Below the pieces are notes generated by a model. It was not told where the DNA came from. It did not search any database and was given only the letters and a program-made list of their open reading frames with translations. 64,000 nucleotides of DNA. Source: an uncultured Alphaproteobacteria bacterium (lineage in GTDB: Bacteria > Pseudomonadota > Alphaproteobacteria > Rhodobacterales > Rhodobacteraceae). Below are positions 12,471 through 21,212 of this stretch, piece after piece (the first letter of the stretch is position 1; every line of letters begins with the position of its first letter). Both the position numbers and the translations under genes were made by a program. The stretch spans positions 1-64,000 of the forward strand of contig CACIJG010000002.1 of the NCBI GenBank assembly GCA_902586885.1, read 5' to 3'.

Positions 12471-12523
12471 CTGGAGATGTAAACGTATTGTATTTTTGAG
12501 TTTTGTAGCAGATGGGGTGTTTT
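12471..12523 (+). repeat. island repeat RA, copy 1 (partial)
   Basis: ...acgtattgtatttttgagttttgtagcagatggggtgtttt matches the 3' half of the consensus. Confidence 0.75.
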
Positions 12524-12615
12524 GACTTTCTAAGAACGCCTATTATCTTTACCTTGCGTCATCTTTGTCTTAAGATTTATTAAAAAATTGATAACACAAA
12601 CCTATGGAGGGAATT

Positions 12616-13332
12616 ATGAGTGATGTGTCAGCAAACAGAGAAGCGATAAAAAAAAACAAAAAGAGAATCTTCGAGATAGATTCCCAAGTTATGACTAATA
12701 AGACCATGATATACGCTTCTAGATCAATGATAGAAGAAAATCGATTAATGATACTTAGCAACTATGCAGCGGCATTTATGGGCAATAGACAAATAGCGAA
12801 TAGCAATACTGATGAGATTTTTGAAAATAGACAGGCTATTTTAGACAATGCTGAATCAAATAATGAGGTAGAGGAAAATTTTATAAATTCTCAAAAAAAT
12901 AAAGCAGCACTTGATTTCTTAAATCATCGGTCTGCTTTAAATTCCGCTGTGCTATCAATCAGCGAGGAAATGGCAGAAATAAACTCCAGATTAATAGATA
13001 TCAACAGGAGGATTATGGAGTCTAATCAAGAGATTGTTGAATTCAATCAGAAACAAATAGATATAAATAGTTCACTTTTAGGAGGCGATCTACAAACTTC
13101 TAAAGCTACTCCTGACTCAAATGCAACCACTATAGAAAACAACCAAAAAATGATGACAGAACTGGAAGAAAGAGTCAGTTCTAACCGTGCGAAAATGGAG
13201 TCATTAATATCTACCTCAGAAAAAAATTCTGAATCGCTTATGGAAAATAAGAAAGGAATTGGTGATAGACGACAATTAATGATGAGTAATCGTGAAAAAA
13301 TCACGGCAAATAAGTCAAAAATATTTAGTTAA
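12616..13332 (+). CDS. Asn-ladder heptad/coiled-coil repeat protein
   Basis: MSDVSANREAIKKNKKRIFEID...; runs such as NRRIMES-NQEIVEF-NQKQIDI-NSS; ATG 12616 follows GGAGG, preferred over track start 12604. Confidence 0.8.
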   Translation: MSDVSANREAIKKNKKRIFEIDSQVMTNKTMIYASRSMIEENRLMILSNYAAAFMGNRQIANSNTDEIFENRQAILDNAESNNEVEENFINSQKNKAALDFLNHRSALNSAVLSISEEMAEINSRLIDINRRIMESNQEIVEFNQKQIDINSSLLGGDLQTSKATPDSNATTIENNQKMMTELEERVSSNRAKMESLISTSEKNSESLMENKKGIGDRRQLMMSNREKITANKSKIFS

Positions 13333-13349
13333 AACTAATGCTTTAAGTT

Positions 13350-13374
13350 GATAAGGGTTCAATTGACCCTTATC
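13350..13374 (+). terminator. 9-bp perfect stem hairpin downstream of the Asn-heptad gene, possible terminator
   Basis: GATAAGGGT-tcaattg-ACCCTTATC; weak T tract follows. Confidence 0.5.
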
Positions 13375-13410
13375 AGCTTCAAAAATTTTGGAAGCCCTCA
13401 ATGTTTGTAG

Positions 13411-13492
13411 ACACCATTTTTGTCTACTCCCAATGCTGGACCAACGGGGGCGTACAGATATTCTATTCTTGGATTTTGCAGCAGATGAGTTG
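13411..13492 (+). repeat. island repeat RA, copy 2 (diverged)
   Basis: accatttttgtctactcccaatgctggacca...gatattctattcttggattttgcagcagatg. Confidence 0.75.
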
Positions 13493-13570
13493 CTGACTCA
13501 AAATAATTTAAAGGTCATTGTTGTTACTAATTTAAGATTTCAAATAACTATCAATGTAATATAAATATTT

Positions 13571-14716
13571 TCAATTTAAGAGGAATTCCTCAATTAATGC
13601 TTTAGGTATAATATTATCTCGAGACTTTTTAAATCGTGACTTGAACACCACCACCATATCAAGTTGAGGAAGTATAAAAATGTATTGTCCTTGATATCCT
13701 AGCGCAAAAAAATATTCAGGGTACTTTTTAGAATTTTTTCCCATGCCCCAAGCCTTACGATAAATGAGGTCTGCTTTCCAAACAGTTTCACTGTTCCACC
13801 ATTGATATCCATATCCATTAAAACCATAGAACTTCAAGGGATTAAATTGTCCTTTGTTTGGATATGAATGCGTCTTTAAAGATTTTTTGACCCAAGAAGA
13901 GCTTATAACTTGCTTCTCACCCCATCGGCCCCCATTTAGGTAAAGAATACCTAATTTAGCCATATCTCTTGCAGATAGCTTTAAATTGGAATATCCATGA
14001 TTAATACCTTGTGGATCCTTCTGCCATTTATAATTCTTTATGCCGATGTGAGAAAATAAATGTCTTTCCGCAAATTTTTCCAGTGCAGTTTCCGTATTTT
14101 CAGTAACAATAGCAGCTAATAAATGAGATCCACTATTACTATAGTTGAACTTTTCGCCTGATTTTTTTTCCGTTCCTAATGATAATATAAAATCCACCCA
14201 ATTCTTTGAATTTTTGAGTTTTTTGATTCCAGACCAGTTTGAAAGAAAGTTATCTCTTGTTTTTAACCCAGAGGTCATTGTCAACAAATGTTGAAGTTGT
14301 ATTTTATTTAGTCTTGGGTCTTTTTTTATTGTTAAATTCCTTGTTAGAATTGATCCTAAGGTCTGTTTCTCATTTTTTATATAGCCTTTATCGATAGCTA
14401 TACCAACAAGCGCTGAAGTGAAACTTTTTGTTACTGAATAAATATTACTCAGAGAATTTTCATTCATATCACCAGCATAAAACTCTCCAATCAAATATCC
14501 ATTTTTAACGATTACAACGCTATCGATCGGAAATTGCTTCTTTTGAATAAATTGAAACATTTTCTTTATCGGATTTGGACTAAAACCTAATGATTGTGGT
14601 GAAACTGTTTTCCATATTGTAGTTGGCCAGTATTGTGCTGCATAGATTGGCGCTAAGGGCGTGAAAATTAAAAAAAATACTAAGGCTAGTTTACTTAACA
14701 TAGTTATCTGATCCAA
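13571..14716 (-). CDS. serine beta-lactamase-family hydrolase (class C-like)
   Basis: 'SVTKSFTSALVG' SxxK, 'YSNSGSHLL' YxN, signal peptide. Confidence 0.9.
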   Translation of the reverse strand: MDQITMLSKLALVFFLIFTPLAPIYAAQYWPTTIWKTVSPQSLGFSPNPIKKMFQFIQKKQFPIDSVVIVKNGYLIGEFYAGDMNENSLSNIYSVTKSFTSALVGIAIDKGYIKNEKQTLGSILTRNLTIKKDPRLNKIQLQHLLTMTSGLKTRDNFLSNWSGIKKLKNSKNWVDFILSLGTEKKSGEKFNYSNSGSHLLAAIVTENTETALEKFAERHLFSHIGIKNYKWQKDPQGINHGYSNLKLSARDMAKLGILYLNGGRWGEKQVISSSWVKKSLKTHSYPNKGQFNPLKFYGFNGYGYQWWNSETVWKADLIYRKAWGMGKNSKKYPEYFFALGYQGQYIFILPQLDMVVVFKSRFKKSRDNIIPKALIEEFLLN

Positions 14717-14767
14717 TTCTTTAAAAATCTACGGTATTATAGAAATACAAAAATTCGGAGAACTAAG

Positions 14768-19534: not shown

Positions 19535-19613
19535 ATTCCAAAACCAAGGTATTGCTTTAAGTCAATCTGTGGGTAATACTTTTCTATCAACAATACGTGC
19601 TATAGGATATTTA

Positions 19614-19964
19614 ATGAGCAAGTTTCAAGAGGTTCAAGATTTCATGAATTACAGAAATTATCAAAAACTTGAAGAAAATTTACATAGTGATTTCTTGAGG
19701 ATTAGAGAAGAAGGACTTATAACCAGAGATGAATTTCTGAGTTACGTAAGAGACGAAATGGAAGGAGAAAAGGCTATAATAGTGTTAGAGTTAAAATGCC
19801 TTTTTGAAAATGAAGACTCACTGGTTTGGCAGGCACTAATTGATGTTCCAGAATCAGGAAATAGAGTGTTATCTACCGTATACGATGCATATAAGGACGG
19901 GAAATTATGGAGATCTATGCTAAATAAAAAAGAAGTATCAATAAATGTGGAAACCCTCTCATGA
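19614..19964 (+). CDS. NTF2/SnoaL-like small protein (paralog C)
   Basis: MSKFQEVQDFMNYRNYQKLEENLHSDFLRIREEGLI...YKDGKLWRSMLN; the track's start at 19488 lies inside the repeat, so internal ATG preferred. Confidence 0.72.
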   Translation: MSKFQEVQDFMNYRNYQKLEENLHSDFLRIREEGLITRDEFLSYVRDEMEGEKAIIVLELKCLFENEDSLVWQALIDVPESGNRVLSTVYDAYKDGKLWRSMLNKKEVSINVETLS

Positions 19965-20015
19965 CCTATTTTGTTAAAATAATAAAAAACACGCTGTTTA
20001 TAAAGAAACGAAAAA

Positions 20016-20315
20016 TCAGGTATAAACGCTCAAATCTACAGTTGGTCCCGAGAATGCGTGAAAAAACTCACCGTCATCATATGGCTTCACATAAGGTTTT
20101 AATACATCAATTAACCTGATATCTCTGTTTAAAACCTCCACAAAATGATCAACGCTTTTCCAAACGATTACTGAAGCATATTCTCCTTCCTCAAGAGCCA
20201 CCAGCCTCTTTTCCAAAGTACCATCTAAGGTTTTATAAATTCTATATGTCTCTCTGAAGACATCTTCTTCACAACCTTCTGTTGGCTTAAAACGTATGCA
20301 ATTTACCATCGTCAT
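20016..20315 (-). CDS. hypothetical protein, possible ABM/dimeric-barrel-like
   Basis: 99 aa ORF; 'MTMVNCIRFKPTEGCEEDVFRE'. Confidence 0.55.
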   Translation of the reverse strand: MTMVNCIRFKPTEGCEEDVFRETYRIYKTLDGTLEKRLVALEEGEYASVIVWKSVDHFVEVLNRDIRLIDVLKPYVKPYDDGEFFHAFSGPTVDLSVYT

Positions 20316-20373
20316 TTTCTTAATCCTGTGAGATTATAACACAAAATATTAAGTTGTTTCTTATTTTTCAATA

Positions 20374-20457
20374 TGCACATATTTGTCTACCTCTATGCAG
20401 GACCACTATGGGTGTACACGTAGTCTATTCTTGGAGTGTGCAGCAGATGGGGTGTTT
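20374..20457 (+). repeat. island repeat RA, copy 7
   Basis: tgcacatatttgtctacctctatgcaggaccactatgggtgtacacgtagtctattcttggagtgtgcagcagatggggtgttt. Confidence 0.9.
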
Positions 20458-21146
20458 CAAGTGTCAGTTAATGAGCGAAATAATCGATACGTGTCATCCC
20501 AATGCTCCCCCCTACCCCAAAATCTGAACCAGCTCGATGAATAAATTACCCACCTTTTTTCATACCAAGAACCACTTGGTGCAGTTATTGGCTTTGGTGT
20601 TTTTTTTGGAATTTCCAAATATATATAATATACCATATAAGAATTATTTCCGCCATCGGTTGACTGATATCTTCTTTCATAATCAAACCTTAAGTCATTA
20701 TAAGGAATCATAAGCTTCTGGTTAGGCTTATTGAGGGAATAGTCCGTCTTAATGAGAACTTTTGCTTCATTATCAAACTTCAATGAGGTCCAATAAGGCG
20801 TAAAAATTCCTATATAAGCACAAAATAGTACGGTTAGAGGTAAAACAACTACATAATTAAAGCCTGAAAAAGGTTCTTTATTTATTTTCTTTAATAAAGC
20901 ACCGAATAGGGCAGCAAAGAATAAAAAGTATATAGGTCCCCCAACGAGAGCAAATAAAGCACCAGTTTTAACTTTAGAAAATACTGTATTTCCAAGATCA
21001 TCTTGATGAACGATGCCTTCTTTTTGATACAAGGCAATTAGTACGATTAATAATAATAACACAAACCAAGGTAACCATAAAAACCAGAATATCTTTCCCA
21101 AGGGTTCTTTATCGGCTTTTGTCTCATTTAGTTTTGGGCTATTCAT
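20457..21146 (-). CDS. hypothetical membrane protein
   Basis: 229 aa ORF with several TM segments. Confidence 0.65.
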   Translation of the reverse strand: MNSPKLNETKADKEPLGKIFWFLWLPWFVLLLLIVLIALYQKEGIVHQDDLGNTVFSKVKTGALFALVGGPIYFLFFAALFGALLKKINKEPFSGFNYVVVLPLTVLFCAYIGIFTPYWTSLKFDNEAKVLIKTDYSLNKPNQKLMIPYNDLRFDYERRYQSTDGGNNSYMVYYIYLEIPKKTPKPITAPSGSWYEKRWVIYSSSWFRFWGRGEHWDDTYRLFRSLTDT

Positions 21147-21181
21147 TCTACTACCATAACATTGATAAACTAAAACTCAAA

Positions 21182-21212
21182 TCTTGGAGTGTGCAGCAGA
21201 TTGGGTGTTTTG
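21182..21212 (+). repeat. island repeat RA, copy 8 (3' part only)
   Basis: tcttggagtgtgcagcagattgggtgttttg. Confidence 0.85.

What the first reader, a model, noticed from the sequence alone, without database searches (positions are those of the whole stretch)
12471..21212. Family of at least eight directly oriented, up to ~95-bp intergenic repeats confined to one 8.7-kb island
Copies at 12471-12523, 13411-13492, 16502-16531, 17896-17983, 18783-18868, 19439-19534, 20374-20457 and 21182-21212 share the approximate consensus TGCACATATTTGTCTACCCCTATGCAGGACCACTTGGGGTACTCACGTATTCTATTCTTGGAGTGTGCAGCAGATGGGGTGTTTT. All lie on the + strand, all are intergenic, and several sit within a few nt of a flanking stop codon (17891, 18873, 20457). 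Copies 3 and 8 keep only the 3' end; the 3' core TTGGAGTGTGCAGCAGATGGGGTG is best conserved. Gene orientation between copies varies while repeat orientation does not, which argues against simple tandem duplication or a promoter/terminator role. I do not recognise this family.
Basis: seen in the sequence. Interest (0 to 1): 0.82.

Follow-up and report, generated by a model that had tools for sequence, protein, structure and literature searches.

The report
Integron-like gene cassettes at tRNA genes
The repeats are recombination sites that end small mobile gene cassettes, which one genus of ocean alphaproteobacteria shuffles next to its tRNA genes much as integrons do, but without the integron's enzyme or its folded sites.

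Summary
The eight repeats are real, intergenic and same-oriented, but not confined to this island. The same ~100-bp element occurs in 20 of 22 genomes of this genus (1-21 copies each) and in none of 296 other genomes of the family. Copies form same-orientation arrays, mostly downstream of tRNA genes (Thr, Leu, Ser) targeted by DUF6538-type tyrosine integrases. The repeats delimit mobile gene cassettes: 29 families of repeat-bounded cassettes recur in different genomes and tRNA islands, nearly always beside a different neighbour, and one clean single-cassette gain/loss is visible. Breakpoints fall at GTGTGCAG|CAGATGGGG at the repeat's 3' end, which points to site-specific rather than homologous recombination. 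The repeat's 5' half carries 12-bp tandem repeats that match, type by type, repeats at the start of three integrase lineages, as integrase arm sites would. No IntI integrase was found and the sites show no excess folding, so this is not a standard integron; it does not match dif either. I infer, without proof, that the tRNA integrases catalyse the shuffling.

The parts
12470..12524 (+). repeat copy 1 (degenerate, 3' part); core break about 12508|12509
   Evidence: nhmmer model 63-117; sequence
13416..13496 (+). repeat copy 2; core break about 13481|13482
16505..16536 (+). repeat copy 3 (3' end only); core break about 16520|16521
17884..17988 (+). repeat copy 4 (type-b arms TTTTGGTCTACCA ATTGGTCTACCCC); core break 17971|17972
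18778..18872 (+). repeat copy 5; core break 18854|18855
19424..19537 (+). repeat copy 6, the anchor copy (type-a arms TTTGTCTACCG TTTTCTCTACCCC) next to the tRNA-Leu-derived att; core break 19519|19520
20368..20460 (+). repeat copy 7; core break 20443|20444
21182..21211 (+). repeat copy 8 (3' end only); core break 21196|21197
21513..21599 (-). tRNA-Leu(gag), target of the island; its 3' end faces the array
   Evidence: ARAGORN; Rfam tRNA
21450..21512 (-). relic of the type-a integrase-side attL flank (CCTATTGATTTGTAAGCATTTTGTGTG), integrase gene lost
   Evidence: similar sequence precedes the type-a integrase in L039
19337..19357 (+). direct copy of the tRNA-Leu 3' end (ATGGTGCGGCTGAGAAGA), att site at the far end of the newest element
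   Evidence: the repeat finder D13
19250..19283 (-). relic of the type-c integrase start/arm region (GTGTGAAACAAAATGAGAAACAA)
   Evidence: same arrangement upstream of the type-c integrase in L171
15265..15298 (-). second copy of the type-c integrase arm relic
   Evidence: the repeat finder D5
12509..13481 (.). cassette 1: ORF 12604-13332 (+), 242 aa
   Evidence: core-to-core interval
13482..16520 (.). interval 2: beta-lactamase-fold hydrolase 13571-14716 (-), SnoaL-like 14768-15226 (-), ORF 15344-16387 (-); probably a composite of older pieces
16521..17971 (.). cassette 3: ORF 16847-17074 (+) and DMSP_lyase-family protein 17298-17891 (+)
   Evidence: PF16867 4e-11
17972..18854 (.). cassette 4: ORFs 17999-18319 (-) and 18375-18719 (-); the first recurs in a family of five with five different left partners
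18855..19519 (.). interval 5: ORF 18873-19112 (-), which recurs in a family of nine beside six different left partners, then integrase relic, att and anchor repeat
19520..20443 (.). cassette 6: ORF ending at 19964 (+; longest reading 19488-19964) and ORF 20016-20315 (-)
20444..21196 (.). cassette 7: ORF 20457-21146 (-), stop codon next to repeat 7

Best explanation
The repeats are site-specific recombination sites at the ends of mobile gene cassettes. A cassette is one gene or a few genes followed by one repeat. Exchange happens in the core GTGTGCAG|CAGATGGGG: the left half-core stays on the cassette's own repeat, the right half-core becomes the first bases of the next cassette, and a cassette can be gained or lost in one step without a target duplication. 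The platform is an integrative island inserted at the 3' end of a tRNA gene by a DUF6538-type tyrosine integrase. The tandem 12-bp motifs in the 5' half of the repeat are the integrase's arm-type binding sites, matched to integrase lineage (a, b or c). The anchor repeat beside the tRNA-derived att works like attI, and the repeats on cassettes work like attC. SHOWN here: the repeats, the recurrent cassettes, the reassortment, the breakpoint at the core, the arm/integrase match and the tRNA linkage. INFERRED: that the motifs are bound by the integrase, that the tRNA integrase itself cuts the repeat core (its tRNA-side core GCACCA resembles the repeat core GCAGCA), and that cassettes move as circles.
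For: Recurrent units: 153 repeat-ended units were compared and 24 clusters recur, with homology in most of them running from the upstream core to the unit's own repeat. Grouped by the cassette right of a core there are 29 families, almost every member with a different left partner; 146 site pairs share only the right cassette, 138 only the left, 8 both. Clean indel: G004 has [A505][D420][F760][H715], G020 has [A505][D420][H715]; H715 is nearly identical in both and the match starts at TGTGCAGCAGATGGGG. Breakpoints: in 28 families sharing the right cassette, identity is at background left of the core (0.62 against 0.60 at -36..-18) and jumps right of it (0.76 against 0.38 at +10..+16, 27 of 28 families); marker bases put the exchange between -3 and +2. 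Orientation: 97 neighbouring pairs same, 13 opposite. Integrase link: arms b, c and a occur both in repeats and at the start of three integrase lineages (37-42% identical between b and a/c, 51% between a and c) lying directly 3' of tRNA-Thr/Leu. Array directly downstream of an integrase: L049 and L039.
Against: No circular cassette and no recombination assay were available. DUF6538 integrases were found in 10 of 22 genomes, against repeats in 20 of 22, and G017 has an integrase but no repeat hit; the genomes are incomplete single-cell assemblies (58-91%). The same core serves repeats with all three arm types, so a core-binding enzyme other than these integrases is possible. In families sharing the left cassette, linkage already fades over the last ~60 bp left of the core, which a single exchange at the core does not explain. 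The core lacks an obvious inverted repeat of the usual tyrosine-recombinase kind (by inspection).
Confidence: 0.6

Rival explanations
1. The repeats are only the distal attachment arms of tRNA-integrating elements. The array is a fossil record of successive integrations and decay (an 'additive' island), with no separate cassette system.
For: Many copies are preceded by tRNA-3'-end fragments and share arm motifs with the integrase starts. Relics of integrase starts lie in the window (15265, 19250) and the newest window element still has both type-a ends.
Against: Many repeats have no tRNA fragment beside them. Recurrent cassettes with Leu-type att pieces sit in Thr islands. Unit boundaries fall at the repeat core, not at the tRNA-derived att. 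A single cassette can be gained or lost inside an array.
Confidence: 0.1
2. RecA-type homologous recombination between dispersed repeats shuffles the intervening genes, for example after gene transfer agent or phage delivery.
For: Repeats share ~60-100 bp. Linkage in left-shared families fades over the last ~60 bp, as conversion tracts might produce.
Against: In right-shared families no part of the repeat left of the core travels with the cassette, whereas crossovers spread over ~100 bp should carry some of it. Many repeats stop abruptly at the core next to unrelated DNA.
Confidence: 0.1
3. Cassettes are moved by another enzyme acting on the core (XerCD, a serine resolvase, an HUH nuclease, or a terminase that cuts the core as a cos-like site).
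For: The core is shared by repeats with three arm types. Xer-like recombinases of 309-328 aa are present in most genus genomes. A serine resolvase family occurs in 13 of 22.
Against: The best dif candidate in this genome (GCATAATATATATTATGTTATTT) does not look like the core. No Y1 transposase in 22 genomes. Serine resolvases were not found in G004, G020 or G021, which are rich in repeats, though those assemblies are incomplete. No viral contig holds the exact core and phage hits are at chance level.
Confidence: 0.17
4. The repeats are regulatory or structural RNA elements such as terminators, attenuators or REP/BIME hairpins.
For: Intergenic, next to stop codons, with a small CCC..GGG inverted repeat.
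Against: Gene orientation is mixed. Folding is not stronger than in shuffled sequence on either strand (mean z about +0.1 over 133 copies). No Rfam match. It does not explain cassette reassortment.
Confidence: 0.03

Closest known systems
Integron cassette arrays (IntI, attI, attC; e.g. PMC8618304, PMC3053210)
   Same: Arrays of small, mostly single-gene cassettes, each with a ~60-120 bp recombination site; conserved half-core on both sides of the break; sites in one orientation; array anchored beside a tyrosine recombinase gene; direct repeats near the anchor as in attI (last point from memory).
   Different: No IntI over the curated cut-off in 22 genomes; sites show no excess single-strand folding; core is GTGTGCAGCAG(A), not GTTRRRY (consensus from memory); the candidate recombinase is a DUF6538 phage-type integrase that targets tRNA genes; gene orientation is mixed.
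Xer/pdif modules of Acinetobacter (PMC12907356, PMC7399989)
   Same: Gene modules bounded by short site-specific recombination sites.
   Different: pdif sites are short XerC/XerD sites (from memory, 28 bp in alternating orientation). Here the sites are ~100 bp, same-oriented, and unlike the dif candidate of this genome.
Additive flexible genomic islands with repeated tRNA ends (e.g. tRNA-Lys island of Methylopumilus, PMC10872708)
   Same: tRNA-anchored variable islands in a streamlined aquatic bacterium; repeated tRNA 3' ends precede the islands.
   Different: Here a second, independent repeat with its own core delimits one- or few-gene cassettes and sets the break points.
Tycheposons (as described in PMC10872708; the original paper is not held)
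   Same: Marine cargo elements at tRNA genes with tyrosine recombinases.
   Different: Described as 4-200 kb cargo elements bounded by tRNA; a cassette repeat of this kind is not mentioned in the passages read here.

Membership tests
Integron | IntI-type integrase | tested here: not met
   TIGR02249: 0 of 22 genomes over the cut-off; the hits below it lie in Xer-sized and other integrase frames
Integron | attC sites that fold strongly as single strands | tested here: not met
   fold z-scores about +0.1 on both strands over 133 copies
Integron | mobile gene cassettes bounded by the recombination site | tested here: met
Integron | cassettes inserted beside the recombinase gene at an anchor site | tested here: inconclusive
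   arrays follow the integrase in L049 and L039; many arrays have no integrase beside them
Xer/pdif modules | dif-like XerC/XerD binding sites | tested here: not met
   dif candidate and repeat core differ
Additive tRNA island / tyrosine-integrase genomic island | location at a tRNA 3' end, repeated tRNA end, integrase of the island | tested here: met
Additive tRNA island / tyrosine-integrase genomic island | unit boundaries at the repeated tRNA end | tested here: not met
   cassette boundaries are at the repeat core
REP/BIME, MITE or known structured RNA | hairpin structure, dispersal in both orientations, or Rfam match | tested here: not met

The most novel reading that the evidence does not exclude
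A second, independently evolved gene-cassette system: tRNA-targeting DUF6538 integrases that also recombine double-stranded cassette sites, with att arms acting like attI. It would let a small-genome ocean lineage swap single metabolic genes in and out of tRNA islands.
Probability: 0.4. Interest if true: 0.93.

Novelty: new variant of a known kind. Interest (0 to 1): 0.84.

Why it matters
Integrons are the textbook case of gene-cassette capture, with one type of recombinase and one kind of folded site. A cassette system with a different integrase family and unfolded sites, in a marine alphaproteobacterial genus, would show that the strategy arose more than once. It would also give a concrete, testable account of how small-genome ocean bacteria vary single genes (a DMSP-lyase-family gene, cyclases, a biotin-transporter-like gene, hydrolases). 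The cassettes are countable units, so gene turnover in wild populations could be measured directly.

Tried and rejected
attC-like folding: tested on both strands, rejected. IntI: none. dif-like core: rejected. Y1/HUH transposase: none in the genus. Phage cos/pac-like site shared with viruses: no exact core in IMG/VR, only chance-level hits in phages. PADLOC: no hits for six tested proteins. Exact junction of the core with a tRNA 3' end: none found; but two repeats carry GTGCACCAGATGG, i.e. the tRNA-type GCACCA in the core. A repeat at a non-tRNA locus (L177) is inside a ~1.4-kb insert whose borders are not at the core, so it does not document a secondary-site insertion. Literature searches (PMC open-access subset only) found no description of this repeat or system; the original tycheposon paper did not turn up in the library.
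Full report
OBSERVATION. The eight copies are present as described: all on the + strand, intergenic, some next to stop codons. A nucleotide HMM built from the window copies and iterated on related loci finds them with E from 5e-4 to 1e-29. The longest copies run to ~115 bp. They sit 3' of tRNA-Leu(gag) (21513-21599, minus strand); a copy of that tRNA's 3' end lies at 19337-19357.

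NOT CONFINED. The same genome has a second cluster beside tRNA-Thr on contig C8, with a tyrosine integrase (PF20172 DUF6538 + PF00589) directly 3' of the tRNA. In the genus, 20 of 22 genomes carry 1-21 copies; 0 of 296 other genomes of the family do. Named hosts are genomes titled 'uncultured Alphaproteobacteria bacterium isolate AG-...'; the integrase's named relatives are Paracoccaceae.

ARRAYS. Fetched loci gave 158 copies; neighbours within 6 kb share orientation in 97 pairs and differ in 13; the median gap between same-oriented neighbours is 987 bp. Many arrays lie downstream of tRNA-Thr(tgt), Leu(gag, caa, tag) or Ser genes; others are on contigs too short to show a tRNA.

CASSETTES. Cutting at the repeats gives 153 units, of which many recur in other genomes and islands (24 clusters; lengths such as ~505, ~920, ~420, ~1430, ~765 and ~715 bp), mostly aligned from just right of the upstream core to the end of their own repeat. 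By right-hand cassette there are 29 families, and almost every member has a different left partner. Two window cassettes belong to such families: the ORF at 18873-19112 (nine copies) and that at 17999-18319 (five copies). A single-cassette difference between G004 and G020 arrays is clean, with the shared sequence starting at TGTGCAGCAGATGGGG.

BREAKPOINT. For families sharing only the right cassette, identity left of the core equals background and rises sharply right of it. Marker bases (CATATGGGG travelling right, GTGTATAG travelling left) bracket the exchange to -3..+2 in GTGTGCAG|CAGATG. Uniform homologous recombination over the repeat would not give this. Families sharing the left cassette keep linkage until about -60 and lose it gradually towards the core. 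The most similar pair (99.3%) breaks at the core, but a 96% pair already differs from about -58. I have no firm explanation; conversion of a ~60-bp tract during exchange is possible. Family averages, not single pairs, are used because pairs within a cluster are not independent.

ANATOMY AND ENZYME. The 5' half of the repeat holds tandem 12-bp motifs in types: a (TTTGTCTACC), b (TTTGGTCTACC), c (TTTGTTTCACAG/TTTGTTTTACAG). The same motifs, reversed, straddle the start of integrase genes placed directly 3' of tRNAs: b at Thr and Leu(caa), a at Thr, c at Leu(gag). The three integrase lineages are 37-51% identical to each other and keep the tyrosine-recombinase signature. This is what arm-type integrase sites should look like. 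Anchor repeats lie next to tRNA-derived att sequences. The window's newest element keeps both type-a ends, a relic integrase flank at the tRNA and att plus repeat 6 at 19337-19537, but has lost its integrase. Relics of a type-c start are at 19250 and 15265. The integrases' tRNA-side core (GCACCA, seen joined directly to type-a flank in L058) resembles the repeat core GCAGCA, and two repeats carry GCACCA itself; this is a lead, not proof.

WHAT IT IS NOT. No IntI, no excess fold on either strand, no Rfam match, no Y1 transposase, no dif likeness, no exact match in viral contigs.

CARGO. DMSP_lyase-family protein, SnoaL-like and beta-lactamase-fold proteins in the window; elsewhere nucleotide cyclase, BioY-like, cytochrome b561-like, alpha/beta hydrolase, DUF1330.

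LIMITS. Genomes are partial drafts and contigs often end in arrays. No circular form or activity was seen. The literature search covers only open-access PMC papers. The catalyst is inferred.

VERDICT. A genus-restricted, integron-like gene-cassette system built on tRNA-targeted islands: same working principle as integrons, not a member of that family by the two defining tests made here.

Noticed in passing
window 58085-58227: tRNA-Leu(caa) looks like an unoccupied target: relatives L077 and L059 have repeat arrays at this tRNA, and their far flank matches the window right up to about 60 bp from the tRNA.
   Followed up: partly
L009:2773-4251 (own genome C8); also L038, L040, L055, L063, L076: A ~490-aa protein without Pfam or PADLOC match is conserved (~83-92% DNA identity) in several islands, in L009 and L040 close to the integrase; possibly a core gene of the element.
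   Followed up: partly
repeat positions -60 to 0: In cassettes shared between islands the last ~60 bp before the core diverge more than the gene does, even in some otherwise near-identical cassettes. Unexplained.
   Followed up: partly
L177 5219-6608 and orthologues L185-L189: A ~1.4-kb insert with one repeat sits downstream of a phosphoesterase gene in G003, G004, G006, G008 and G016 and is absent in six close relatives; its borders are not at the core.
   Followed up: partly
L171:3180-4890: The tRNA-Leu(gag) element has an inverted copy of its integrase-side att region downstream of the integrase, suggesting that integration or inversion can occur in both orientations.
   Followed up: no
L009:9806-11940: The C8 island carries what reads like a cytosine-5 methyltransferase and a neighbouring possible restriction gene (translations; no family search done).
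   Followed up: no
window 39154-39237: ARAGORN calls a tRNA-Pyl(cta) that Rfam does not support; probably a false positive.
   Followed up: no
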